A stretch of DNA of 56,988 nt, taken from a virus. Positions within the stretch are counted from its first letter, which is position 1. Each line of letters opens with the position of its first letter. Shown piece by piece: positions 13,838-47,805 of the stretch. Below the pieces are notes generated by a model. The model saw only the letters and a program-made list of their open reading frames with translations, had not been told where the DNA came from and did not search any database. The stretch is taken from the IMG/VR virus record IMGVR_UViG_3300009012_000001, positions 1 to 56,988 of that record, one strand, 5' to 3'. Both the position numbers and the translations under genes were made by a program.

Positions 13838-14004
13838 CGTCGTTCCCCCTTGTCGCCCGGTTTGTCCAACGTCAGCATCACCAACGCGCCCGGGATGGCG
13901 TCCTCCCGCGCGACGACCACGACGCCCCGCGCGGCGCACTGGCGGATGAACTCGTCCACGTCGACCGTCCGCGTGTCCACGGCCACCTTCATCGGGAATT
14001 TCAT
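13834..14004 (-). CDS. Small hypothetical protein
   Basis: 56 residues from ATG 14004 (ATGA overlap with the Ro60 gene); ATG 13992 is also possible. It has an alternating beta-helix pattern (KVAVDTRTVDVDEFIRQCA, GVVVVARED). It is translationally coupled to the Ro60-like gene, so it may serve the same process. No known family. Confidence 0.5.
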   Translation of the reverse strand: MKFPMKVAVDTRTVDVDEFIRQCAARGVVVVAREDAIPGALVMLTLDKPGDKGERR

Positions 14005-15443
14005 TCCGCCGCGACGACCGGGGCTGCCATGTCCGTGCCATCCTTCGCCGCCGCGTAATCGCCCTCGGCCTCCTCCACGCGAATCCAATCTACGATACGG
14101 TCGCTGAACCCGTTCACGCGCGTCCAGCCCTGCCGCGTGTCCAGCGCGGGCGCGTAGGGCGCCACGTTGACCACGTAGGCGGCCCGGGTCCACGCCTTCC
14201 GGATGCCGTCATGCGCCTGTTCGTCCGTCACGACAACAACGCGGTCGAACCCAGCGGTCTTCGGCGCGATGGCCTCCAATGCCGCGTCCAGGTACGTCGC
14301 GCCGTGCCCCTGGCTGCGGTGGATGCCTTCCAGCAGGCCGAACCCGCGCAGGTTCGCCACCTCGACCGCCGCGTTGCTGAACGTCCAGACCCGGCATTCC
14401 TCGCACAGTTCGCGCAGCAGGATGGCGAGCGCCCCCGCCGTGTCGATGCGGGTCGGGACGAAGGACGGGGCGTAGCCGTGGCGCAGGCGCGCCCGCAGGC
14501 CGCCCGTGGCCATGGGGGAATCCATCGACTCGGACACGTCGACGACCAGCGCGGTGCGGCCCGCCAATGTCGGCCGTCCGGCCAGCGTCGCCACCATCGC
14601 TCGGTCCAAGGCGTCCGCGAACTTCGGGACCGCCCGGTACGCCGACACGAACTGGAACGGCAACGCCCGCGCCGTGCGGACCCGTGCCGGGTTGGTCAGC
14701 GCCTCCTCGACGATGGGCGTCGGGACGTCAGCGGCTTCCATGTTGCGCAGGTTGCGCAGCAAAGCCAGGTAGCCCAGCGACCGCTCGCGCAGCAGGCGTT
14801 CCCATGTCGCCTTCTTGTCCGCCCCGCCCGACAGCGCGACCTCCCAGGTATCCGGCGGCTCCAGTTCGCCCGCGAGCAGCGACTTCCACAGCGCCGACTG
14901 TGCCTCGTCGGCTGGCTTCGGGTGCGCCAGGCGCAGCACGTCGCGCAGCCGCACGACGCCCTCGCCGCCGCGGTCGTACTTCGCCAACTGGTAGGCGTCG
15001 AACTTGCCGAACGCCAGCGCCAAGCCGCGCTTGACCTGCGCGCTCAGTTTGGCCGGGGCGTTCGGCGTCTTGCCGTCGCCCCAGTAGAGGGCCAGGAATT
15101 CGGTGAGTTCGTCCGCGCGCCGGACGACCTGGGCCAAGGTGTCCCCGACCAGCCGCCCGCGGGACAGGCGCGCCAACTGCCGGACCAGCCACAGCGGGAC
15201 GTGGCGCAAGGAGAGGTCCGTCCGCGCCGACACCGCGATGGCCGCGACCGCGGCGGGGTCGACCCGCTCGCACAAATCCGCGATGCGGGTCGCGATGTCC
15301 GCGCCCGATTCATAGTAGGTGTCTTCCCAGAGCAGGCAGGACGCGACGGCGCGCCGCAGTTCCAGTTCTGGGGATTGCGCCATCGCCCGCCCGCCTTCGT
15401 GCGTCCGCGGCCGCGCCGCGGTCGGTCGGTTCGTCTTGGCCAT
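14001..15443 (-). CDS. Ro60/TROVE RNA-binding ring protein
   Basis: 480 residues from ATG 15443 with AAGGGGGCG as ribosome site. Residues about 20-290 form the helical-repeat TROVE domain (SLRHVPLWLVRQLARL, ALYWGDGKTPNAPAKL, RNLRNMEAADV, ALPFQFVSAYRAVPKF). The C-terminal about 180 residues are a von Willebrand A domain with the metal-site motif DVSES and TDEQAHDG. Ro60 proteins form a ring that holds the ends of misfolded RNAs and binds Y RNA. Bacterial homologues work with PNPase and Y RNA in RNA quality control. The gene has its own near-consensus promoter (15701-15673) and a 230-nt leader. Phage copies are known but rare. Confidence 0.9.
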   Translation of the reverse strand: MAKTNRPTAARPRTHEGGRAMAQSPELELRRAVASCLLWEDTYYESGADIATRIADLCERVDPAAVAAIAVSARTDLSLRHVPLWLVRQLARLSRGRLVGDTLAQVVRRADELTEFLALYWGDGKTPNAPAKLSAQVKRGLALAFGKFDAYQLAKYDRGGEGVVRLRDVLRLAHPKPADEAQSALWKSLLAGELEPPDTWEVALSGGADKKATWERLLRERSLGYLALLRNLRNMEAADVPTPIVEEALTNPARVRTARALPFQFVSAYRAVPKFADALDRAMVATLAGRPTLAGRTALVVDVSESMDSPMATGGLRARLRHGYAPSFVPTRIDTAGALAILLRELCEECRVWTFSNAAVEVANLRGFGLLEGIHRSQGHGATYLDAALEAIAPKTAGFDRVVVVTDEQAHDGIRKAWTRAAYVVNVAPYAPALDTRQGWTRVNGFSDRIVDWIRVEEAEGDYAAAKDGTDMAAPVVAAE

Positions 15444-15523
15444 GTCGTTTACGCCCCCTTGAATTTTTGCTGGCGGGGGAAAGGCGGACGGGGGTATCCG
15501 GGTGTCACCCCGGACCCTTCTGC

Positions 15524-15549
15524 GACGAAGTATCCCCGGCCTGCGCCAC
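15524..15549. repeat. Ro60-leader direct repeat, copy B
   Basis: GACGAAGTATCC-N5-CTGCGCCAC on the plus strand, 21 of 26 positions identical to the copy at 15630-15655. The five differing bases are all in the central gap, so the two flanks are conserved as separate blocks. Confidence 0.8.
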
Positions 15550-15629
15550 CGCCAACGTTGGCCTGCGATGAAAACCACCCGACGGGAAAAGGCGAACCCG
15601 GAGCGCCCCTTGCGGGGCATCGCGGTCAA

Positions 15630-15655
15630 GACGAAGTATCCGAATTCTGCGCCAC
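15630..15655. repeat. Ro60-leader direct repeat, copy A
   Basis: Partner of 15524-15549, 106 bp away. It lies just inside the predicted start of the Ro60 transcript. Confidence 0.8.
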
Positions 15656-15666
15656 GGCGGATGGCA

Positions 15667-15701
15667 GGTAGAATATTACCTTATCTACCACGGGGCGTCA
15701 A
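15667..15701 (-). promoter_or_regulatory. Ro60 promoter with GGTAGA/TCTACC operator
   Basis: Minus strand: TTGACG (15701-15696), 17-nt spacer, TAATAT (15678-15673). An inverted repeat GGTAGA-N11-TCTACC (15689-15667) covers the spacer and the -10. The half-sites are the same as at the other promoters of the set. The -35 overlaps the stop codon of the upstream gene. Confidence 0.85.
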
Positions 15702-17003: not shown

Positions 17004-17059
17004 TTGACGAGCCTTTCTACCTGTGGTATAATAGTAGGGTGGGTAGAACCCAGGGGAGG
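17004..17059 (+). promoter_or_regulatory. Promoter P1 of the rightward operon, with operator and conserved leader
   Basis: TTGACG (17004-17009), 17-nt spacer, TATAAT (17027-17032) with an extended TGG. TTCTACC (17015-17021) and GGTAGAA (17042-17048) form an inverted pair flanking the -10. The leader ends in CCCAGGGGAGG, the ribosome site. About 56 bp in all are shared with P2 (20251) and P6 (29397). Confidence 0.9.
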
Positions 17060-23740: not shown

Positions 23741-23765
23741 TGGTAGAATCATAGCGGAGGTAGAA
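23741..23765 (+). promoter_or_regulatory. Promoter P4 with operator, downstream of the LexA-type gene
   Basis: Extended -10 TGG-TAGAAT (23741-23749), then CATAGCGGAGGTAGAA, matching P5. A TTGACA lies at 23731-23736, only 7 nt before the -10, too close to serve as its -35, so an extended -10 promoter or an activator is needed. The GGAGG in the operator doubles as ribosome site for the gene at 23771. Confidence 0.65.
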
Positions 23766-31847: not shown

Positions 31848-32880
31848 GATGATGAGACCTTGAACCGCGCGTACTCGAGCAGGATATCGCTTTGGGCGGC
31901 CCCGAGCACGCGGGACACGTGCGTCATCCCGAGCACGGCACGGCTGACGATATTTGTCGTCAGCGTTTGCTGCAACGACCCATTGAAATAATAGTCAATA
32001 CTGTTCGGCTTGGCGATCACCTTGAATTGATGGAATGTATTGACGGCCACGTTAATGTCAGACCCATCGGTACCCGTCCCTTCCTTTTTCTGTTGGGGTC
32101 GCAACTTCCCGCTGTTCACCATGGTCCAAGCGGCGAAATCCGAGAGCAATGTCGTCAGCAGTCCGCCCGCTTGCGCCAACCCGATGAGAATGCCCGCCGA
32201 ATTCGCGCGCCAGTTGGTGTCGAGGGTAGGGAAGAAGACCCACGCTTCGTAACTGATGCTGCCCCATTCCCCGACATGCGCCGTCTTTTTGGTGATGAGA
32301 TCAGCACTGTCGCCGCCATCGGCGATGAGGTCCACAATCCCTCGGCTCACGGGGGAAGTCCGAACTAAACTCGTCCCGACGATCCCAGCCCGCATCGTCC
32401 AATATGTGTCGATGTCGGCCAACGCGCCGCCGGTCACGTTCGCACTGGCCACGATGAACGTATTCGCGATATCCCGGTCGCCCGGCGTGTCGGGTAGGTT
32501 GCTAATATTCCCCGTATCCGCGTAGATGGTCCGCCACGTCAGCGCTGACGTCCCCAAATCATAGGTACTCGCCGCCTGCGGTTTGAGTGTCTGCGGGTCG
32601 AGCACACCCGCCACGCCATGGATGTGGTCGCGGATATTGCTGGAAAATCCTCGTTATCGCTAACGAGATTGGACTATATCTTACTGCGAGATTCCGCAGC
32701 CCCCGCATGTAGTCTCTGAGGGGTCCCGATGGACTTCCCTGCTGATTGGCCGCACCCGACGATTGTCACCGACTCCGGTACGTCGGGATACCCGGCTGTT
32801 CCAGCATATAGCGGGGTTACGAGGCCAACTTATCCGACCTCGACCTGATTCATTTGGGCCGCCGTGAGCACTTGGCCCAC
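31844..32880 (-). CDS. Tail fibre / lectin-like protein, interrupted by a group I intron
   Basis: Exon 1 is 32880-32837 and exon 2 is 32639-31844; splicing removes 32836-32640 and joins ...AQMNQVEV-NIRDHIHGVAG... in frame (840 nt, 279 codons). 'VLTAAQMNQ ... NIRDH' is a usual opening of tail fibre proteins, so the frame restoration is strong support. The C-terminal about 200 residues, with beta-strand pairs (YEAWVFFPTLDTNWRANSAG, FHQFKVIAKPNSIDYYFNG), look like a LamG/concanavalin-type sugar-binding domain. The GTG at 32880 is chosen as start; an upstream ATG frame (32927) is out of phase by one base, see findings. Confidence 0.75.
32640..32836 (-). ncRNA. Group I self-splicing intron, 197 nt, no internal gene
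   Basis: All core elements are readable on the minus strand. P1: exon CGAGGU pairs with intron GCCUCG, giving the needed U-G at the 5' splice site. P3: CCCCGC / GCGGGG. P4: GCUG (in ATGCTGGAAC) / CAGC (in AATCAGCAGGG). P6: GTCC / GGAC hairpin. P7: GACTA (in CAGAGACTACA) / TAGTC (in AAGATATAGTCC). P8: CTGCG / CGCAG. P9: CTCGTTA-GCGA-TAACGAG. The intron ends in the required G (32640). It should splice with guanosine as cofactor. The tail-fibre frame closes exactly when it is removed. Confidence 0.95.
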
Positions 32881-32914: not shown

Positions 32915-33451
32915 TCAACGCCTCCATCCCCACGCAAACTCCGCGGCGGTCTTGGCGTGTTTTCGAAGGTTGCACGACGAACAGGCGCAGCAGATGTTGT
33001 CTGGCCAATTCGTCCCGCCGCGGGCCAATGGAATCTTGTGGTCTACATGAAAACGCCCATGCAATTGCCGCCAACAATAGAAACACTGTGCGCGTTGTGT
33101 CGCGTAGATACGCGCGACATCGTGGATTCCGTACCAACCAATCGCCTGCGCCTTGCGGGCTCGCCGATAGCGACGACGCGCACGCAGGCGCGATTCAACA
33201 CGCAACCTCGTGGCATACCGCCTTCGGTAACGACGTTGACTTTCCAATCGGCGACGAGGATACCGCTGACGGTATCGTGCCGAAGCCATCCTATTCGCAG
33301 CGCGGATTTGTTCTGGATGTCGTGCCTTCAACAATCGCCATGCCTTGCGTCCACAGGCGCGGCATGATGGGCATAATCCGTCGTACCTCTGTCTGTCGCG
33401 GGAATATGCGACAAATGGTTTCCAACGGCGGCATTTCGTGCAACGTTTCAT
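32915..33451 (-). CDS. HNH endonuclease with N-terminal zinc finger, next to the group I intron
   Basis: 178 residues (ATGA overlap with the upstream gene). An N-terminal zinc finger (CTKCRRWKPF and LCPSCRAC), a long basic helix rich in RY/RR pairs, then RAQCFYCWRQLHGRFHVDHK and IPLARGGTNWPDNICCACSSCN, the HNH core (CxxC, DHxxP, GG, N, CxxCN). It ends 78 bp upstream of the 5' splice site, so it lies beside the intron, not in it. GC is lower than in flanking genes. It probably cuts the intron-less tail gene to promote spread of the intron. Confidence 0.88.
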   Translation of the reverse strand: MKRCTKCRRWKPFVAYSRDRQRYDGLCPSCRACGRKAWRLLKARHPEQIRAANRMASARYRQRYPRRRLESQRRYRRRYATRLRVESRLRARRRYRRARKAQAIGWYGIHDVARIYATQRAQCFYCWRQLHGRFHVDHKIPLARGGTNWPDNICCACSSCNLRKHAKTAAEFAWGWRR

Positions 33452-38713: not shown

Positions 38714-39296
38714 GGCGGCGGACCACCTCGTCGACGTACGCCTGCAGCGTGTCTTCGGCCAGTTGCCGCGCGAGTGGTTCAGACGGTAGCATCGGCCGCG
38801 CGGGAATGCCGGGGTGGTGGACTTCCCGCGCGAACGCATAGAACCCGCGCCGCGCCTTACGTGGTTTCCCACGGCCTGCGCCCTGCGGGGCGGCCGTGAT
38901 GAACCGCAAGAACTTCCGGGCCTTCGGCCGGATGACATACGGCCGCGTCCCGAACTGGTGGAAGACGGCCTTCTGGTCGTTGGTCCCGACCGTGACGTCG
39001 TTCACGCCGAGCGCGTAGGCCGAATCGGGCGCCCCCGGGACGAACGATTGTGCCATGCGGCCCGTGTCGCGCAGGGGCTGCGCCGTCCCGGCCCCGCGGC
39101 CTTTGCGACGCGCGGCAACGGTGTTGGGCGACAGCGGCGCCCAGGGGCGTTCCAGGCCGCCTGCGCGGAAGTTCTGGTCTATCCACGCGACGACCCGCTG
39201 TCCGACCAAGTCCATCATCACGCGGCCGTCCACGGCGGCCCCCAGGGCGGTCAGGCGGCGCACGGCGTCGGCAGCATCAACGTGGACCTCTATCAT
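38706..39296 (-). CDS. Virion morphogenesis / tail completion protein (Mu gpG / HK97 gp10-like)
   Basis: 196 residues (ATGA overlap). Opening helix (DAVRRLTALGAAVDGR), then WAPLSPNTVAARRKGRG with PLRDTGRMAQSF, FHQFGTRPYVIRPKARK, and a helical end. The 'W-x-P-L-S/A-x-x-T' and 'L-R-D-T-G-x-M' motifs are typical of this head-tail joining family. Confidence 0.75.
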   Translation of the reverse strand: MIEVHVDAADAVRRLTALGAAVDGRVMMDLVGQRVVAWIDQNFRAGGLERPWAPLSPNTVAARRKGRGAGTAQPLRDTGRMAQSFVPGAPDSAYALGVNDVTVGTNDQKAVFHQFGTRPYVIRPKARKFLRFITAAPQGAGRGKPRKARRGFYAFAREVHHPGIPARPMLPSEPLARQLAEDTLQAYVDEVVRRRG

Positions 39297-39817
39297 CGGT
39301 TGTCCAGCAGCCGACTCTTGGTCGTGATGTCGCGTTTGTCCAGTTCATCCGTGACCTTGTTCGGGTCCTGGACCTGCCACGTGCTTGGGCCTTCGTGGAA
39401 CGTCGGCGTATAGTTCATGGTCGTGCTGAAAATGTCCGCGATGTCCGTGCGGCCGCCGATGACCGCGCCGCTGCTGGTCACTAGCGGGATGAGCCCGCTG
39501 GCGATGGCGGCGATTTCCTCGTCGACCGTCCGGTATTGGTCCAGCAGTTCCGTGAGGCGCGGCCCCGGCAGCGGGATGAGCCGCCGCGACAGCAGCAACA
39601 GCAGGGCCTTCGTGGTCGCGACGGTGGTGAGGTACGGCACGTCTGACGTGAACGGGATGTTGTAGGCCCGGCTGATGCGCGCGTTGATGTCGGCTTCCGC
39701 CATGCCGGCGAAGTTCGCGATGGACGCCGACGTCAGCGTGGACGCGGAACCAATGTCGGGGAGAGTAAGCATCATAAGCGAAACGCTCGAATAACTCACT
39801 GGCAACGTCGGAGGCAT
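39293..39817 (-). CDS. Head-tail connector (DUF1320 / Mu gp36-like)
   Basis: 174 residues. MAEADINARISRAYNIPF (near residue 40), VATTKALLLLLSRR and an acidic middle. The pattern 'AEA-D-INARI-x-x-Y-x-x-P' is the mark of this family, which adds to the head after packaging. It lies immediately after the sugar block, so that block separates it from the other head genes. Confidence 0.75.
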   Translation of the reverse strand: MPPTLPVSYSSVSLMMLTLPDIGSASTLTSASIANFAGMAEADINARISRAYNIPFTSDVPYLTTVATTKALLLLLSRRLIPLPGPRLTELLDQYRTVDEEIAAIASGLIPLVTSSGAVIGGRTDIADIFSTTMNYTPTFHEGPSTWQVQDPNKVTDELDKRDITTKSRLLDNR

Positions 39818-39818
39818 G

Positions 39819-40751
39819 TCAGCCCGTCACTCCCTCTCGCACGAGGCCGACTTGTTCGGCGACCAATTCCGTGAACCCGACCAATGGATGCCATCCCGTC
39901 GCGGTCATAAACTTCCGCGGGGCGGCGACTAACGCGGGCGGGTCGTTCGGCCTGGCCAGCGCTGGGTCCGTCCTGACCTTCGCCACGTCGACGCCGAGCA
40001 GGCCGCACGCCGTCCGCACGACGTCCCAGACACGGCGACCGTCACTAGAACCGATGACCCAGTCGTCTGGCGGCTGCAGCAACGCCACACGCATGGCGCG
40101 GACCATGTCGTCCGCATGGCACCAATCCCGGACGATTTCCTGGTCACCCAGGACCAATTCGTCCACCCGCCCGTCCTTGATGGCCCGCACGCCCGCGCAG
40201 ACCTTGTAGAACACGCCGTACCGCTTGCGTGGCGATTCGTGCTGGTACAGGATGCCGCAGGTCACGGGCAGTCCGTACTGCAGGCGGTACATCCGCGCCA
40301 GATGGTAAGCGGCGAGTTTGCTGCCATCGTAGGGCGTCAGCGGATGCATCGGCGTACCTTCGTGCTGTGGGGCGGGCGCGAGCCCAAACATGCCGCTGCT
40401 CGCCGCGACGAAGACCTTCGGCGGTTTGGGCATCGTCCGCGCCGCCTCCAGCACGGCCAGTGTCCCGCCGACATTGACGTGGTGGTAACGCCACGGCGCG
40501 TCCCAACTGTCCGTGACGAGGTTGAGCGCGGCGAGGTGGTAGACTTCGTCGGGGGCGCGTTCCCCGAGGAGTTGGCGTACCAGCCACGCGTCCGTCACGT
40601 CACCCTTCGTCACGAACCCAGCCGACGGGGCGGCGTCCCGCAGCGACGGCGTCGCCGCGTCCATGCCGGATACCTCGTAGCCCATCCCGGCCAAATGCCG
40701 CGCCAGATACCACCCGTCCTGTCCCGCGATGCCCGTGATGAAGGCTTTCAT
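39819..40751 (-). CDS. GDP-mannose 4,6-dehydratase-like sugar-nucleotide enzyme
   Basis: 310 residues from ATG 40751 (ATGA overlap). AFITGIAGQDGWYLARHLAG holds the Gly-rich NAD(P) loop (TGxxGQDG), VYHLAALN, then SSGMFG and YDGSKLAAY (catalytic Tyr-x-x-x-Lys), PRKRYGVFYKV and WVIGSSDGRRVWDVV. The 'TGxxGQDG' loop and the 'HESPRK' stretch point to the GDP-mannose 4,6-dehydratase group, which makes 4-keto-6-deoxymannose donors. It is at the end of the sugar operon. Confidence 0.8.
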   Translation of the reverse strand: MKAFITGIAGQDGWYLARHLAGMGYEVSGMDAATPSLRDAAPSAGFVTKGDVTDAWLVRQLLGERAPDEVYHLAALNLVTDSWDAPWRYHHVNVGGTLAVLEAARTMPKPPKVFVAASSGMFGLAPAPQHEGTPMHPLTPYDGSKLAAYHLARMYRLQYGLPVTCGILYQHESPRKRYGVFYKVCAGVRAIKDGRVDELVLGDQEIVRDWCHADDMVRAMRVALLQPPDDWVIGSSDGRRVWDVVRTACGLLGVDVAKVRTDPALARPNDPPALVAAPRKFMTATGWHPLVGFTELVAEQVGLVREGVTG

Positions 40752-41506
40752 GCTGGCAGAATCACCGCCCCCAAGAATTCCTCGCCTTTCCCGATATATT
40801 GGCATCGTTCGACGCGGCCGAACCCCTCGACCCGCAGGGCGAGTTTGGCTGGCGAGTACCAATCGGCAAAGTCCCCGACCTCGTCGCAGGCGCGCACAAA
40901 CCGCTGGAATGCCGTGTGCGTGCTGATGTCCATGTCAATCGGCGGTAGGGGGATGCCCAGCGCCGTCCAGCGTCGGTCGGAATACACGAGGATGCGGGCC
41001 TCCTCACACCAGCCCAACGCCTCGCGGAGAATGTCCCGTATCTGCGGCGTGTGGTGAAGCGTCCCGGACGAATAGAAAATTTCCATGTCGGACCATGTCG
41101 GTGTTCCGTCCATCATCACCGACGCCTTGCAATTCGCGTAGCCGTGGAGTTCCAATACGCGGATGGCCAGCGCAACGTTGTCCGGCACGATGTCGGTGAC
41201 CATGACGTCGTTCCCCGCCCGCGCGAACTGCAGGGCCTCCAGCCCGACGCCGCACCCGAAATCCAGGATGCGTTTGCCGTGCGTCGTGTCCAGCCCGAAG
41301 AACTCGCGCCATCCGTTGTGCCAGTTGCGCCAGCCGTTGACGTCGTAGCGGGTCCGTTCCATCTGCGCGATGGTGGCCCGCAGGTGGTCGTCGGACCACT
41401 GGAGCATGTGCGCCGAGGAGATGTAGCCCACGTCGTCCACGGGCGGGCGCGCCCATTCCGCCTTGGCCCGCACGGCGTCATAGCCCACGGTCGTAACGCC
41501 ATTCAT
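40748..41506 (-). CDS. SAM-dependent methyltransferase
   Basis: 252 residues; GTG 41488 is an alternative start. ILDFGCGVGLEALQFARAGN near residue 82 is motif I of class I methyltransferases, then VMVTDIVPDNVALAIRVLEL, and FYSSGTLHHTPQIRDILREA. In this block it probably methylates a sugar. It could also act on a protein. Confidence 0.8.
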   Translation of the reverse strand: MNGVTTVGYDAVRAKAEWARPPVDDVGYISSAHMLQWSDDHLRATIAQMERTRYDVNGWRNWHNGWREFFGLDTTHGKRILDFGCGVGLEALQFARAGNDVMVTDIVPDNVALAIRVLELHGYANCKASVMMDGTPTWSDMEIFYSSGTLHHTPQIRDILREALGWCEEARILVYSDRRWTALGIPLPPIDMDISTHTAFQRFVRACDEVGDFADWYSPAKLALRVEGFGRVERCQYIGKGEEFLGAVILPA

Positions 41507-41651
41507 TCATGGCGGCGCGCCACCACGCCGTGGCCCACCCGTCTTCTACCACGGATTCTTGCGACACCACCAACCCTTCGAACAAAAACGCCTGCATGTC
41601 GGGCATCCACATTGGCGTCCCCAGTTGTTGCGACCACGCGTACAGGTTCAT
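41478..41651 (-). CDS. Small Trp-rich protein in the sugar block
   Basis: 57 residues from ATG 41651 (ATGA overlap). MNLYAWSQQLGTPMWMPDMQ, then SQESVVEDGWATAWWRAAMN. Aromatic-rich, helical, no homologue recognised. The end overlaps the methyltransferase by 29 nt. Confidence 0.5.
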   Translation of the reverse strand: MNLYAWSQQLGTPMWMPDMQAFLFEGLVVSQESVVEDGWATAWWRAAMNEWRYDRGL

Positions 41652-42064
41652 CGGAACACGCCATCAATCGCGTGCGGGCTGTAGGGCGGGTCCCAATGCT
41701 GGGTCGGGAAATGTGCCGCATCGTCGCGTTCGTCCACGGCGAGCATCCACAGCGCGCCGACGTAGCCCAGCCAACTCTCGAAGGCCTGCCGTCGGTCCGC
41801 GACGGGCCGCCGCGGGTCATAGCATTTCGCGCGGTGGACGCGCAGATACCACAGCGCCAGCACGTGCGACAGCACGGCGGCCAGCCGCATGTTCCCGTCA
41901 TACCGCCCGTGTGTGGGAAACGTGCGGATGACTTCCCGCATGACCTGCACGAGCCACTTGTCTTCCCGCGTCCGGTCGTGGCGCGGGTCGGGGGAGGGCC
42001 GCGATGCCCGCTTGATTTCTTGCTGCACGAACGCGACCCACCAGACCGGGGAATGCCCCGTCAT
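41648..42064 (-). CDS. Hypothetical protein in the sugar block
   Basis: 138 residues from ATG 42064. SPVWWVAFVQQEIKRASRPS, DKWLVQVMREVIRTFPTHGR, then VLALWYLRVHRAKCYDPRRP. Helical and aromatic-rich. No family recognised. The start follows the C-methyltransferase by 22 nt. Confidence 0.5.
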   Translation of the reverse strand: MTGHSPVWWVAFVQQEIKRASRPSPDPRHDRTREDKWLVQVMREVIRTFPTHGRYDGNMRLAAVLSHVLALWYLRVHRAKCYDPRRPVADRRQAFESWLGYVGALWMLAVDERDDAAHFPTQHWDPPYSPHAIDGVFR

Positions 42065-42086
42065 CCGGTGAATCCACTGCGCCGCC

Positions 42087-43265
42087 TCATTGGACGTGCG
42101 GCTGCGGGAGCGGGACAATCCACCGCCCCCGGTAGTCTGGTTCGCGCGCCTGGAACGCTTCAATGAAGTGGAACGGCAGGCAGAACAACCACGCCGGCTT
42201 CCGCCGCCGCATCTCCTCCTCGCTGATAATGGGGATTCCGCTTCCGACGGTCCGTTTCCCCCATTTGTCGGGGTTGCGGTCGGCGATGTACGGAACGAGG
42301 TCGGGCCCGATGCCGTACGCCTGCAGGATGGTGTTCCCCCGCGTGCTGGCGCCGTAGCCCGCGATGGTTTCCCCGGCGGCCGCACGGCTGCGCAGCATCT
42401 GCAGCGTCGTCTTCTTGTTCCACGCCACGCGCCGCGCGAACGCGGGCCAGTCGGCTGCGACGGGGTCCGTGCTGATGCCGCCGCGCCCATGCGTGATGAA
42501 GCAGCGGAACGACCCGCCGTTGACGTCGTTGAACTGCACTTTCGCGATGTGCAGGGCGTGTTTTTCCACCAGTGCCGCGAAGGACTGCACGTCGTAATAG
42601 CACAGGTGTTCGTGGCTGACGTTGCCCACGTCGTTGGTGCGGACCATGGCGGGCGCGTAGGCCATCTGCACCACGAAAACGCCGTCGGTGGCGAGGCACG
42701 CCTTGACCGCGCGCAGGAACGCGTTCGGGTCGTCCAGGTCGTAGAACATGGCGACGGCGAAAACGGCCTTCGCTTTACCGTAGGTGCTGACGAACGACCC
42801 GACGCCACGCGCGGGCGGGAAGAAGTCGCAGACGATGGTGTTCCCGCCGTCTTCCGCCGCCGTCCGCAGGTTGGTGGCTGGGTCGAATCCGATGCGCCGT
42901 GCCTGCGGCGGGAGCATCCGCAGCAGCGTCCCGTCGTTGCTGCCGATGTCCACGACCACGTCGCCCGCTCGCAGGTCCACCATCCGGCCCGCGTCGTCCA
43001 CCACGTCGCGCAGGGCGCGGACCATCTGTTCGTTCGTGCCGCTGCGATACCAGTAGCCGCGTTCGTAATGCCACGCCTGGGGCACGGTGTGCGTCAGTTG
43101 CACCAGCCCACACCCGTCGCAGCGCACCAGGGCGAGCGGCGCGCGGTGCCCGTCCTGGTCCGCGTCGACGAACGTGCTGACGTAGTGCTCGCCCAGGCGC
43201 AGGACGTCAATGAGCCGCGGGCTGCCGCAGGCGCGGCACGCCCGGATTTCTCTGACCGAGTCGAT
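42087..43265 (-). CDS. Sugar C-methyltransferase with zinc site; start codon not standard
   Basis: About 392 residues if read from 43265. The frame shows IRACRACGSPRLIDVLRLGE and YVSTFVDADQDG, then VRCDGCGLVQLTHTV with GYWYRSGTN, all typical of the NovU/TylCIII-type C-methyltransferase zinc-binding N-terminus (two CxxC pairs). VVVDIGSNDGTLLRML is the SAM site, and GYGASTRGNTILQAYGI the C-terminal domain. No ATG, GTG or TTG lies between the upstream TAG (43274) and the first CxxC. The best candidate is ATC at 43265, 9 nt after AGGAAGGGG. A truncated GTG start at 43127 would delete the first CxxC pair. Confidence 0.75.
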   Translation of the reverse strand: MDSVREIRACRACGSPRLIDVLRLGEHYVSTFVDADQDGHRAPLALVRCDGCGLVQLTHTVPQAWHYERGYWYRSGTNEQMVRALRDVVDDAGRMVDLRAGDVVVDIGSNDGTLLRMLPPQARRIGFDPATNLRTAAEDGGNTIVCDFFPPARGVGSFVSTYGKAKAVFAVAMFYDLDDPNAFLRAVKACLATDGVFVVQMAYAPAMVRTNDVGNVSHEHLCYYDVQSFAALVEKHALHIAKVQFNDVNGGSFRCFITHGRGGISTDPVAADWPAFARRVAWNKKTTLQMLRSRAAAGETIAGYGASTRGNTILQAYGIGPDLVPYIADRNPDKWGKRTVGSGIPIISEEEMRRRKPAWLFCLPFHFIEAFQAREPDYRGRWIVPLPQPHVQ

Positions 43266-44397
43266 GGACGTCTACCCCTTCCTGGTCCGGCACGATGCGC
43301 CAGGGGTCGTACACCACCGACCCTGGGGCGAACGGCGTGGTCTGCCACCGTCGGTCGTTCGTGCCGATGAGGACGACGGCGGGGCCCAACGGCGTGGCGT
43401 CGTCGAACGTAGCGACGTCCTCGCCGCGGTCTTCGAGGATGGTCTTGACCAGCAGCGCGTGGCTGCCCGTCGTGATGTCCGTGCCCGCCTTGTACGCCAC
43501 CCCGCAGATGGCCTTCGGCAGGTCGTGCGCGCACATCAGGTCGGCCAGCCATTCCGCCTGCCGTTCCCGCGCGAGCATCACGGCCTCGAACAGGTCGTAG
43601 GACAGGCCCGCCTGGCGCGCCAGATGTGACAGGGCGATGTTGTCGCGGGGGTGGCAACCCCCGCCGTCGCCCATGCCGGCGGACAGGTAGGCGGGGCTCG
43701 TGAGCCGTTTGTTGGCCATCCGGAGCGCGCCGAGCACGGCGTCCACGTCGCAGCCCGTCTTGTGGCACAGTTCCAACATCGTGTTGGCGAACGCGAGTTT
43801 GAGGCCGATGAACGTATTGTAAGCGACCTTCGTCAATTCGGCGTCGCGCACCGACATTTTGATGATGGGCGCCTCCACGGTCTGGCGGTAGAACGATTCG
43901 GCCACCCATTCCGCCTTCAGGCTGTCGCAGCCGAGCAACACGAATTCCGGATGGAGGTAGTCGCGTTCCACCGTGCCCATGGCGATGAACGACGGGTTGT
44001 AGACGTACGGCACGCCGCCCAACACCGGCTTCAGGTCGCGGTCCGACGTCCCCGGCAGGACGGTGCTGACGACCGCGACGCAGGTGTCCGACCCGGGCCG
44101 GACGTGCTCGACGAGCCGTGCTACCGCGTGCCGGAGGTGGCCGTAAAAGAAGTCCGCTCGGTCGGCGGGCAGGCGCGTCACGCCCTCATATTCCGGGCCG
44201 TGCGGCGTCTGCACCGCGACGAACACCAACTCCTGCCGGGCCACGTCGGCGAGGGCGCCCGTGGCCAGCCCGGCCGCGCGCGCGGCGTCCATGCGGTCCT
44301 GGGCCAGGTCGTGCCCGACCACGGCGTGGCCCTTGCCCCGCACGGCCAACGCCACGGGCAGGCCGAGTTTCCCGAGCCCGACGAACCCGACGTTCAC
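43207..44397 (-). CDS. UDP-glucose / GDP-mannose dehydrogenase-like enzyme
   Basis: 396 residues from GTG 44397 (AAGGGG upstream). VGFVGLGKLGLPVALAVRGK is the NAD site. The middle helix KVAYNTFIGLKLAFANTMLE has the invariant Asn. GDGGGCHPRDN holds the catalytic Cys (GGGC-x-PRD), and the C-terminus AICGVAYKAGTDITTGSHAL closes the fold. It oxidises a sugar nucleotide to a uronic acid. Its last about 20 codons overlap the C-methyltransferase N-terminal frame. Confidence 0.85.
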   Translation of the reverse strand: MNVGFVGLGKLGLPVALAVRGKGHAVVGHDLAQDRMDAARAAGLATGALADVARQELVFVAVQTPHGPEYEGVTRLPADRADFFYGHLRHAVARLVEHVRPGSDTCVAVVSTVLPGTSDRDLKPVLGGVPYVYNPSFIAMGTVERDYLHPEFVLLGCDSLKAEWVAESFYRQTVEAPIIKMSVRDAELTKVAYNTFIGLKLAFANTMLELCHKTGCDVDAVLGALRMANKRLTSPAYLSAGMGDGGGCHPRDNIALSHLARQAGLSYDLFEAVMLARERQAEWLADLMCAHDLPKAICGVAYKAGTDITTGSHALLVKTILEDRGEDVATFDDATPLGPAVVLIGTNDRRWQTTPFAPGSVVYDPWRIVPDQEGVDVHRLGQRNPGVPRLRQPAAH

Positions 44398-44406
44398 CGA
44401 ATCCCC

Positions 44407-44435
44407 TTGACGGCAGGGTGGTATCTTGGTATAAT
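44407..44435 (+). promoter_or_regulatory. Promoter P7, near-consensus, pointing into a non-coding gap
   Basis: TTGACG (44407-44412), exactly 17-nt spacer, TATAAT (44430-44435) preceded by extended TGG. GGTATAAT-GC-TACC forms the operator-like pair, and another GGTA precedes it. It is on the plus strand, opposite to both neighbouring genes, and no coding frame starts downstream. Confidence 0.85.
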
Positions 44436-44441
44436 GCTACC

Positions 44442-44572
44442 TGGATGGGGCGGCGCGGACGGCGGGACGCGCGAAACCGTCACAGGGAAGCCCGCCATGC
44501 GAACCACAAGCGCGTAGCCAGGCCGGGGCACAACCCGGTCACGAGTGGAAACCAACGCCGCCCCGCCCGGCC
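44442..44572 (+). ncRNA. Candidate structured non-coding RNA
   Basis: Starting about 7 nt after P7, the RNA is closed by a perfect 9-bp helix, GGGGCGGCG (44447-44455) with CGCCGCCCC (44556-44564). Inside are GACGG/CCGTC (44458-44462 / 44477-44481), ACGCGC/GCGCGT (44467-44472 / 44510-44515), CCAC/GTGG (44504-44507 / 44545-44548) and a CCGGG-GCACAA-CCCGG hairpin (44523-44538). The second pair starts in the loop of the first, so a pseudoknot is likely. In a genome where genes usually overlap, a 181-nt intergenic stretch (44398-44578) with its own opposite-strand promoter is strong evidence for an RNA gene. It matches no RNA family I can name. A tRNA-like T-arm is absent. Confidence 0.7.
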
Positions 44573-44578
44573 GTAATT

Positions 44579-47524
44579 TCACCAGTACGCCCCCACGAAC
44601 GGCGCGGCGGCGTCCTTGGCGCGCCAGGTCAATTCCGCTTCCAGGTCCTCCATCGTGGCGAACCGGAAGGTCTGGGGGCCGACCCCGTTGGGCGGGACGG
44701 TGTAGTCCCTCGACGCGGCGAGTTCGAACTTGAAGTCGAACCCCTGGCCCAGGATTTTGTTCGCGTCGGAGGCGTAGGTCAACGTGTCCGCGTTCATGTA
44801 CCCCGGTTTGCCGCGGAAGTATTGCCGCCACGTGTCCAGCACGGTCTGGCACCGCTGGCGGACCTGGTCGGTCACGCGCATCCCGTTTTGCTGCAGTTCG
44901 TAATTGGCCAGCAGCAACTGGTCGCGGCAGATGAAGTGTTTCTGCAGCAGGCGGTCCGGGTAGGCGGCGATGTCGCGCTGCAGCAGCGGCCAGTTCCGCC
45001 AGAACCGTCGGCGGCGCACGGCCTCGGTCAGGTAGCCCGTGTGGGCGATGGCCGCGTCGGACAGCACGACCGTCAGGCCCGGCCCCTCGTTGAGCCCTAG
45101 TTCTGGGTGCTCGTGAATCATGCCGAAGAAGCGCATCGTCTTCCCGCCCTGCGGGGCGCGGCGGAACAGGCGCACGGGCAGGTCGGGCTTGAAGGTCGTG
45201 TCGCAGGCGAAATGATGCTGGCGGATGGAATACCCGTTGAAGATGTTCGCGCGCAGGTACTTGGGGACGCGTTCCGGGTCCATCAGCCGCTCGTCCGTGT
45301 CAATCCACAGCACCCAGTCCATCGCGCAGGCGCCGAGCGCGTCGTTGCGCGGGGCCTCGAACCCGTGCGCGACGGCGTCGCGGGCCGGGACGACGCGGGC
45401 ACGGAACGAGTCGGCGATGCGCCGCCCCTCCGGGGACAGGCCGGTGTCGGCGACCACGAATTCGTCGACCACATCCACCAGCGACCGCAGGCACCAGCGC
45501 ATCTGGTCCTCCGCGCCCGCCCCCGCGATGACCGCGGCGGACACGGTCTGCCGCGGCCGCTGCAGCCGCAGTTTGCGGCCCATGTCGATGGGCCGGACGG
45601 GGGTCTGGTCGGCTTCGTAGGACACGAGGTGCCAGCCCAGGGCCTCGCCCGTGCGTTCCTCCAGCGTGAACGGCATGGTCTGGACCGAAAACCGCGGCTT
45701 GTGGCCGAACATGTCGTGCAGGTCGTGCGGGTCGAATTCCCAGACATGCGCGCGGTGCGGATAGAACCCGTCGGCCAGCGGGTTCGCGCTGAGGTATTCC
45801 CACGGCCCGTACGGCACGGTCAGGAACACGGCGCCGCCGGGCTTCACCCATCGTTCGAGTTTGGTGACGGTCGTCCACGGTTCGGGCAGGTGCTCCAGCG
45901 TTTCGCCCATGAACAGCAGGTCGAACGGAGCGTCCGCAGCCAGGTCCGCGTCCTCGTCGCCCACGCGGAATTCCAGGTTCGCGGGACGGACGGCGCGTTC
46001 GGCGCGGAATCGGTTGGCCCAATCCACGCCGTGCTTGTCGACGTCCACGCCCAGGAATTGCCGCTCAGGAAATTGGTTGCTGAAACCCACCGTGTAGCAG
46101 CCGTGCGCGCAGCCGTAGTCGAGGACCCGGACGGCCGTGGGCCGCTCGCGGAGGGACTGGACGCAGGCGGCGAACCGTTGCTGGTTCGTTTCCGCGTCGA
46201 AGTCCGGCGCGTGCGTCTGCCCGATTTTCTCGTACTGCGCCGTGTAGTCATCCGGCCCTCCGTCGGTGAACGCCCACTGCTCGCGCAACAGCGCCCGGAT
46301 GCGGCGGGCGGGTTCGTCGTCCAGGCCCGCGACCGCTCGCTTCGCGGCAAGGATGTCGCTGTGGCGGATGAAGTGGTAGGCGAGCCGATGCGGGCTGTCG
46401 TTGTTCGCGGCGATGAGCCGGTCGAACCCCGCCGCCCAGTCCGCGGCGACGCCGGACCAGTCCAGCGCCTTGGCGCGTTCCAGGCCAGCGCGGCTGGCCG
46501 CGTCCCACGCCGCGTCGTCGCGCACATAGCGCAGCACGGCCTGCACGAACGGAGCGACATAGTCCGGGTTGACACGCGCACCCGTCCCCTCGCCCACGAC
46601 GGCGGGGATGTCCACCAGCGTCCCGGCGCCTGGGGCCAGCGTTTCCGGGAGCGCCCCGCGCGCGCTGCTGACGACGGGCAGACCGCACGCCTGCGCCTCC
46701 ATCGCGCTGATGCAGGACACCTCCGCGAACGCCGGCTGCATCGGGGACGGCGTCGGATAGACGTACACGCCGCCCGTGAGGTAGTGCGCGTAGAGTTGGT
46801 CCTTCGTCAAATGCCCCAGCCATTCGACGCGGTCGCCGAACGCGCGCATCCGCTCGTCGATGGACTGGTAGAACGGCCGCATCTCCTGGACGGTGTTGTC
46901 GTACCCGCAGACGCACACCCGCAGGGCCGGGTCGGCGGCGAGCAGCGCCGGGAACACGGCGCCGAGCAGGACGTCCAGCCCGCGCTCCGGCCGGGCCGCG
47001 AACAGCAGCTTCTTGCGGTCGCGCGCCGCGCCAGGAGCGATGTGCGCCCGGACCCGCGCCAGGTCCACGCCGTTGCGCGTTGTCCACAGGGCGTCGTCCG
47101 GCAGCGCGTACACCTCCCGGTACTGCGCCCGCATGAACTCGCTGAGGACCATCACGCGGTCCACGTTCCACATGGTGCCGCGGAAGCGGGCGGCCTGGCG
47201 GCCCAGGGCGAGGTCGTGGCACCACAGCAGGTTGAGGCGGCTGGCCATCCGCTGCCCCAGGGCGTCGGGCGTGCGCTGGACGACGCAGACGTCGTGCGGC
47301 ACCGTCTGCGCGTAGACGCCGAACTGGTCGGCGGGGAAATAGGGGACGCCGTCGTACTCGCCCGGGCGGCCGTGGCTGAAGACGCGGACCCGCAGGCCCA
47401 GTTTGGCGAGTTCCCGGGCCACGCACAACGCGGCGGTTTCGGACCCGCCGAGGGCCGCGTGGTCCAGCGTGTCGCCCTGGAAGGGCATGCCAGGCGCGAA
47501 CATGAGGACGTCCAGCCCAGTCAT
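44579..47524 (-). CDS. Tri-domain protein: glycosyltransferase (GT-B), methyltransferase, glycosyltransferase (GT-A)
   Basis: 981 residues from ATG 47524 (ATGA overlap). Residues about 1-400 are a GT4-type transferase (DVLMFAPGMPFQGDTLDHAA, FAARPERGLDVLLGAV, AMEAQACGLPVVSSARGALP). About 430-660 are a SAM methyltransferase (RVLDYGCAHGCYTVGFS, DLLFMGETLEHLPEP, VFLTVPYGPWEY). About 680-981 are a GT2-type transferase (VVDEFVVADTGLSPEGRRIA, DWVLWIDTDERL with DTD, RLFRRAPQGGKTMRFFGMIH). Fusion suggests the steps act on one nascent glycan. It shares the operon with the sugar-nucleotide enzymes. Confidence 0.85.
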   Translation of the reverse strand: MTGLDVLMFAPGMPFQGDTLDHAALGGSETAALCVARELAKLGLRVRVFSHGRPGEYDGVPYFPADQFGVYAQTVPHDVCVVQRTPDALGQRMASRLNLLWCHDLALGRQAARFRGTMWNVDRVMVLSEFMRAQYREVYALPDDALWTTRNGVDLARVRAHIAPGAARDRKKLLFAARPERGLDVLLGAVFPALLAADPALRVCVCGYDNTVQEMRPFYQSIDERMRAFGDRVEWLGHLTKDQLYAHYLTGGVYVYPTPSPMQPAFAEVSCISAMEAQACGLPVVSSARGALPETLAPGAGTLVDIPAVVGEGTGARVNPDYVAPFVQAVLRYVRDDAAWDAASRAGLERAKALDWSGVAADWAAGFDRLIAANNDSPHRLAYHFIRHSDILAAKRAVAGLDDEPARRIRALLREQWAFTDGGPDDYTAQYEKIGQTHAPDFDAETNQQRFAACVQSLRERPTAVRVLDYGCAHGCYTVGFSNQFPERQFLGVDVDKHGVDWANRFRAERAVRPANLEFRVGDEDADLAADAPFDLLFMGETLEHLPEPWTTVTKLERWVKPGGAVFLTVPYGPWEYLSANPLADGFYPHRAHVWEFDPHDLHDMFGHKPRFSVQTMPFTLEERTGEALGWHLVSYEADQTPVRPIDMGRKLRLQRPRQTVSAAVIAGAGAEDQMRWCLRSLVDVVDEFVVADTGLSPEGRRIADSFRARVVPARDAVAHGFEAPRNDALGACAMDWVLWIDTDERLMDPERVPKYLRANIFNGYSIRQHHFACDTTFKPDLPVRLFRRAPQGGKTMRFFGMIHEHPELGLNEGPGLTVVLSDAAIAHTGYLTEAVRRRRFWRNWPLLQRDIAAYPDRLLQKHFICRDQLLLANYELQQNGMRVTDQVRQRCQTVLDTWRQYFRGKPGYMNADTLTYASDANKILGQGFDFKFELAASRDYTVPPNGVGPQTFRFATMEDLEAELTWRAKDAAAPFVGAYW

Positions 47525-47805
47525 GCGCGCGTCTGCCGCACCACGAACCGCTCGCGCCGCACGAAATTGTAGGCGCTCCCGGCCACGGTCTTCAGCGCGA
47601 ACCATTCCCACAGGTACAATTCGCTTTCGCTGGTCGGCATCGTGAACAACGCGTAGTAATGGGTGGTGTCGGACTGCTGCGCCGTGATGGACGCGACGAC
47701 CGTGCCCGCCACGCCCGTGACCTTGAAGATGGGCGCGGAATCCGGCGCCACCGAACTGACGAACGTGAACTGGACCGTGTCGTTCGTTTCGAAGACGTCG
47801 GTCAC
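47521..47805 (-). CDS. Hypothetical beta-rich structural protein
   Basis: 94 residues from a GTG that overlaps the previous stop (GTGA). ETNDTVQFTFVSSVAPDSAP, then GVAGTVVASITAQQSDTTHY. The layout resembles a small Ig-like or jelly-roll fold. Between the repeat-rich tail protein and the sugar block. Confidence 0.55.
   Translation of the reverse strand: MTDVFETNDTVQFTFVSSVAPDSAPIFKVTGVAGTVVASITAQQSDTTHYYALFTMPTSESELYLWEWFALKTVAGSAYNFVRRERFVVRQTRA

What the first reader, a model, noticed from the sequence alone, without database searches (positions are those of the whole stretch)
44398..44578. Orphan near-perfect promoter driving a structured RNA from inside the opposite-strand sugar operon
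TTGACG-N17-TATAAT with an extended -10 points rightward into a 181-nt gap, the largest in the sugar/late operon, where genes usually overlap. The gap is closed by a 9-bp perfect helix, holds a CCGGG/CCCGG hairpin, and has two more helices arranged as a likely pseudoknot. No frame starts after the promoter. The promoter carries the same GGTA/TACC half-sites as the Ro60 promoter. The RNA matches no class I can name and could be a new family.
Basis: partly seen in the sequence, partly recalled or inferred. Interest (0 to 1): 0.85.

Follow-up and report, generated by a model that had tools for sequence, protein, structure and literature searches.

The report
Phage RNA gene co-regulated with Ro60
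A bacterial virus carries a strong, regulated promoter that fires against the direction of its sugar genes into a short stretch that makes no protein; the promoter is shared with the virus's RNA-handling gene Ro60, so the stretch probably encodes a small RNA, but no relative of that RNA was found and its claimed elaborate fold is not proven.

Summary
The promoter is real. TTGACG-N17-TATAAT at 44407-44435(+) carries a palindrome, GSTA-N6-TASC, that occurs six times in the window (0.49 expected), each time on a -10-like element. It is not an orphan but part of a phage regulon, and its closest match is the Ro60 promoter. The other four members sit 15-33 nt before start codons. Only Ro60 (two Y RNAs in its leader) and this promoter lead into non-coding sequence.

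The 137 nt downstream are non-coding in all frames. They are bracketed by a 9-bp helix near both ends, matched by only about 0.3% of shuffles or genome windows. Folding energy, helix number and the proposed pseudoknot are no better than chance.

The gap is the upstream edge of a sugar-gene cassette that related phages lack. No homologue was found, so covariation cannot be tested. It is not a Y RNA: a covariance model built here scores it 1.3 bits, against 56 and 45 bits for the two Y RNAs in the Ro60 leader.

Best reading: a lineage-specific regulatory RNA at a moron site, co-regulated with Ro60. An antisense or relic promoter remains possible.

The parts
44407..44435 (+). sigma-70-type promoter TTGACG-N17-TATAAT with extended -10
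44428..44441 (+). palindrome GGTA-N6-TACC over the -10 element (operator-like site of the regulon)
44442..44578 (+). RNA1: proposed non-coding RNA; start inferred from the promoter, 3' end unknown
   Evidence: non-coding in all six frames; transcript inferred, not shown
44447..44455 (+). 5' arm of the 9-bp closing helix
44556..44564 (+). 3' arm of the 9-bp closing helix
44521..44540 (+). G+C-rich hairpin (CCGGG/CCCGG) inside RNA1
44445..44576 (+). 43-codon ORF after the promoter, judged not a gene
   Evidence: codon log-likelihood -0.14 per codon, gene median 0.37; no homologue
43207..44397 (-). UDP-glucose/GDP-mannose dehydrogenase-like gene; its Shine-Dalgarno-like AAGGGG (44403-44408, minus strand) overlaps the start of the RNA1 -35
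   Evidence: Pfam PF00984, PF03721
44579..47611 (-). glycosyltransferase/methyltransferase gene that RNA1 runs towards
   Evidence: Pfam; relatives
39819..44578 (-). sugar-gene cassette plus RNA1 gap, between the glycosyltransferase and the connector gene 39293-39817; absent at this junction in relatives
15667..15701 (-). Ro60 promoter, same subclass as the RNA1 promoter
15571..15667 (-). first Y RNA module in the Ro60 leader
   Evidence: 55.8 bits with model R1
15463..15561 (-). second Y RNA module in the Ro60 leader
   Evidence: 44.6 bits with model R1
14001..15443 (-). Ro60 (TROVE) gene
   Evidence: Pfam PF05731; 92 phage records with relatives

Best explanation
A lineage-specific non-coding RNA gene at a moron site of a phage. 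Shown: a near-consensus promoter with the phage's own operator, of the same subclass as the Ro60/Y RNA promoter; non-coding sequence after it; a helix joining both ends of that sequence; a position at the upstream edge of a sugar cassette that relatives lack. Inferred: a phage regulator switches this promoter together with Ro60 and the other promoters of the set; it makes an RNA of roughly 120-140 nt whose ends pair and which stops near the gene border (perhaps by Rho, since no intrinsic terminator was found); the RNA acts as a regulatory or protein-binding small RNA in the phase in which Ro60 and the Y RNAs are made. Its target is unknown.
For: GSTA-N6-TASC occurs 6 times against 0.49 expected, always on a -10-like element. 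TTGAC plus this site occurs only at Ro60 and RNA1, never in shuffles. The other four members lie 15-33 nt before start codons; only Ro60 and RNA1 do not, and the Ro60 leader holds two Y RNAs. No coding signal in any frame. Closing helix near both ends: 0.35% of shuffles, 0.29% of genome windows. Cassette position. Precedent: convergent small RNAs at moron sites of EHEC prophages (PMC4104026).
Against: No transcript data. No homologue, so no covariation. Folding energy and helix number ordinary. No intrinsic terminator after it, so the RNA need not be short.
Confidence: 0.45

Rival explanations
1. The promoter makes a long antisense transcript, or colliding polymerases, against the glycosyltransferase and upstream late genes, holding them down while the regulon is active; the gap has no function as an RNA of its own.
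For: It points straight into the 3' end of a late gene on the other strand and no intrinsic terminator lies between.
Against: Does not explain the end-closing helix. Untranslated antisense RNA is usually ended by Rho (general knowledge).
Confidence: 0.23
2. A relic: the promoter came with the cassette or was left from a lost divergent gene and now makes nothing of use; the closing helix is chance in a G+C-rich gap.
For: The gap is the edge of an insertion; no homologue; ordinary folding.
Against: Promoter and operator are near-perfect and match the regulon of this same phage, which argues for upkeep.
Confidence: 0.2
3. A nearly leaderless mRNA for a 43-residue basic peptide (ATG 44445 to TAA 44576).
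For: The ATG lies 3 nt after the predicted start, and the frame ends just before the neighbouring gene.
Against: Codon log-likelihood -0.14 per codon, below the 5th percentile of genes and inside the shuffle range; no homologue; no Shine-Dalgarno.
Confidence: 0.06
4. A leader of the dehydrogenase mRNA on the minus strand (riboswitch- or attenuator-like).
For: The 181 nt precede a gene with a good Shine-Dalgarno.
Against: Minus-strand fold z -0.05, with 101 of 200 shuffles as stable; no minus-strand promoter in the gap; does not explain the plus-strand promoter.
Confidence: 0.04
5. A Ro60-bound Y RNA.
For: Shares its promoter subclass with Ro60 and has paired ends.
Against: 1.3 bits with the Y RNA model at full sensitivity, against 55.8 and 44.6 for the two modules in the Ro60 leader; motif absent.
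Confidence: 0.02

Closest known systems
Convergent small RNAs at moron sites of lambdoid prophages in EHEC (EcOnc01-03, AgvB, AsxR; PMC4104026)
   Same: Non-coding RNA with its own promoter, on the strand opposite to cargo genes inserted in a phage late operon.
   Different: Those are 51-60 nt, mostly Hfq-bound and have mapped ends and some known targets; RNA1 would be longer, has no terminator found, no sequence relation shown, and lies at the upstream rather than the downstream edge of the cargo.
Bacterial and phage Y RNAs (Yrl) that partner Ro60/Rsr (PMC7790460, PMC12282133)
   Same: Promoter subclass shared with the Ro60/Y RNA leader; paired ends.
   Different: Lacks the GTGGNGNAG...TACTTC motif and scores 1.3 bits with the model built here.
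Operator-linked promoter sets of temperate phages (general knowledge)
   Same: One palindromic operator repeated over the -10 elements of several promoters.
   Different: The regulator of this phage was not identified; that it is a repressor is inferred from the operator position.

Membership tests
Ro60-associated Y RNA | Conserved module GTGGNGNAG...TACTTC with closing and inner helix | tested here: not met
   Best plus-strand score in the gap 1.3 bits, filters off; motif only at 15527-15549 and 15633-15655 in the window
Ro60-associated Y RNA | Binds Ro60 | not testable with these tools
   needs a pull-down
Phage small RNA at a moron site | Own promoter inside or beside inserted cargo genes | tested here: met
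   promoter; cassette absent at this junction in relatives
Phage small RNA at a moron site | No protein encoded | tested here: met
   all six frames negative
Phage small RNA at a moron site | Discrete stable transcript | not testable with these tools
   no expression data; no intrinsic terminator found
New structured RNA family | Structure conserved by covariation among homologues | tested here: inconclusive
   no homologue found
New structured RNA family | More stable or more helical than chance | tested here: inconclusive
   only the closing helix stands out; energy and helix count ordinary
Known Rfam family | Match at gathering score | tested here: not met
Protein-coding gene | Codon use like other genes of the phage | tested here: not met

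The most novel reading that the evidence does not exclude
RNA1 is the first seen member of a new family of structured phage RNAs that is made together with Ro60 and the Y RNAs and works with them, for example as a second RNA of the Ro60 particle, or as its substrate or regulator.
Probability: 0.1. Interest if true: 0.7.

Novelty: new member of a known kind. Interest (0 to 1): 0.38.

Why it matters
Small RNA genes in phages are rarely annotated because they have no reading frame. Here the phage's own operator marks a non-coding stretch as part of the same regulon as Ro60 and its Y RNAs. If a transcript is confirmed, it would be a second non-coding product of that regulon and a simple test case for what Ro60 does in phages.

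Tried and rejected
Y RNA: rejected by covariance model and motif. Protein gene: rejected by codon statistics and lack of homologues. tRNA or tmRNA: none in the window. Known RNA family: none at the gap. Minus-strand leader: no folding signal. Homologue searches that led nowhere: phages by distant BLAST (best E 0.6), plasmids, exact promoter in viral contigs, core pattern in viral contigs (one hit, L069, which looks like part of a reading frame), Ro60/RNA1 promoter pattern in viral contigs (none), eleven related records (only 14-18 nt matches). The short matches in L007 (end of a DNA methylase-like frame) and L011 were inspected and judged chance. A pattern of the other promoter class hit 15 viral contigs, about what I estimated for chance; not followed up. 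A portal-protein scan gave one short relative.

Full report
WHAT WAS CHECKED. The window is a 56,988-base IMG/VR virus record. The gap 44398-44578 lies between a minus-strand dehydrogenase gene (43207-44397) and a minus-strand glycosyltransferase/methyltransferase gene (44579-47611). The promoter TTGACG-N17-TATAAT is present at 44407-44435 on the plus strand with an extended -10. It matches 11 of 12 consensus bases; the next best sites in 40-50 kb match 9.

THE PROMOTER IS NOT AN ORPHAN. A scan of the whole window found further strong promoter-like sites at 17004, 17470, 20251, 20952 and 29397 on the plus strand, besides the Ro60 promoter on the minus strand, all with CTACC/GGTAG-like half-sites. 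The core is a palindrome over the -10 element, GSTA-N6-TASC. It occurs six times in the window against 0.49 expected, and no shuffle reached six. All six lie on -10-like hexamers: 15680(-), 17492, 20272, 23742, 29418 and 44428(+). Five have a recognisable -35; the one at 23742 has an extended -10 but no good -35 at the usual distance. TTGAC followed by this site is found only at Ro60 and RNA1 and in no shuffle. The consensus letters were derived from these sites, so the statistics are optimistic, but the margin is wide. The other four sites are followed within 15-33 nt by a start codon with an open frame; Ro60 and RNA1 are the exceptions.

THE DOWNSTREAM SEQUENCE. Contrary to the finding, a 43-codon frame (ATG 44445 to TAA 44576) starts after the promoter. 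Its codon log-likelihood is -0.14 per codon, against a gene median of 0.37 and a gene 5th percentile of 0.007, and all six frames of the gap are negative. It has no match in phages or PHROGs. I treat the stretch as non-coding.

STRUCTURE. Only the 9-bp closing helix is unusual: a helix of at least 9 bp placed near both ends is found in 0.35% of dinucleotide shuffles and 0.29% of genome windows of the same length. The margins were set after seeing the sequence. The folding energy is ordinary (z -0.85; 23 of 105 GC-matched genome windows are as stable). A version trimmed to the closing helix gives z -2.2, but the trimming was chosen afterwards. The number of helices of 5 bp or more equals the shuffle mean (14 against 14.2), and two helices of the proposed pseudoknot share two bases. 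The pseudoknot is therefore not supported. The minus strand shows no folding signal.

GENOME CONTEXT. Relatives of the glycosyltransferase were found in 20 viral loci and two genome loci. In most of those with enough sequence the gene is followed closely by head/connector genes like window 39293-39817; a 51%-identical copy on a proteobacterial MAG contig shows the same junction. In the window 39819-44578 lies between the two. The sugar genes and the gap are thus probably an inserted cassette, a moron-like position. The closest relative record (L053, 57,073 bases) has no promoter of this class and no RNA1 match.

NO HOMOLOGUE. Searches in phages, plasmids, viral contigs by pattern, and eleven related records gave only short chance-like matches. 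Covariation cannot be tested, so 'new family' stays open. Two limits apply: the metagenome collection could not be scanned, and BLAST and exact patterns would miss a strongly diverged RNA.

NOT A Y RNA. The Ro60 leader holds the motif GTGGNGNAG-N4-12-TACTTC twice (0.02 expected). The same motif lies close to Ro60 in other phages, in up to five copies. I aligned 24 such modules with their variable inserts cut out. The two-helix structure covaries strongly: 134 cells changed on both sides against 58 in shuffles, and a covariation score of 0.67 against 0.22 shuffled and 0.21 at best when slid by 1-3 columns. The structure was drawn from a few of these sequences and the 3' parts were picked partly by complementarity, which favours it. 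The model finds the two window modules at 55.8 and 44.6 bits. It also finds modules outside its training set, near Ro60 in L006 and L010 and in Caulobacter phage CcrPW, Brevundimonas phage Papperlapapp and Microcystis phage Mvi-JY20. RNA1 gets 1.3 bits on its own strand with filters off. Rfam reports no Y RNA at the window's modules. That the modules bind Ro60 is inferred from their position and from published work on bacterial Y RNAs (PMC7790460; PMC12282133).

HOW IT MOST LIKELY WORKS. I favour a short RNA gene, switched with Ro60 and the rest of the regulon, in the manner of the convergent small RNAs at moron sites of EHEC prophages (PMC4104026). Promoter, operator-like site, absence of coding and position are shown; transcript, 3' end, partner and target are inferred or unknown. 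A promoter meant for antisense interference, or a relic promoter, are the main rivals.

VERDICT. A real, probably regulated promoter in front of a non-coding stretch, with one suggestive helix. It is interesting as a marked candidate RNA gene in a Ro60 regulon, but without transcript or homologue it is not a demonstrated new RNA family.

Noticed in passing
window 15463-15667 (-); also L006, L007, L008, L009, L010, L011, L054, L065, L070, L071, L072: Tandem Y RNA modules in or near the leader of phage Ro60 genes, two to five per phage, some with a tRNA-like insert; strong covariation, and Rfam does not report those of the window.
   Followed up: partly
L054 2792-2859 (Xanthomonas phage 10KY502B, OQ622092.1 20624-20691): The annotated tRNA-Thr overlaps a Y RNA module (motif at L054 2793-2815), so it is probably a tRNA-like Y RNA rather than a tRNA.
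   Followed up: partly
window 17492, 20272, 23742, 29418 (+) and 15680 (-): Five further sites with the GSTA-N6-TASC palindrome on -10-like elements: an early regulon whose regulator was not identified.
   Followed up: partly
window 32650-32865 (-) and 32915-33451 (-): A group I intron (Rfam RF00028, 53.5 bits) next to a frame that looks like an HNH homing endonuclease.
   Followed up: no
window 39819-44578: Sugar-gene cassette between glycosyltransferase and connector gene that is absent at this junction in related phages.
   Followed up: partly
L067 (JACQOE010000096.1): A proteobacterial MAG contig carries a related phage region (glycosyltransferase 51% identical), a hint to the host group of this lineage.
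   Followed up: no
window 44491-44517 (+): Inside RNA1 an AGGGA stretch (44485 region) precedes ATG 44497 and a six-codon frame (MRTTSA, stop 44515-44517); probably chance.
   Followed up: no
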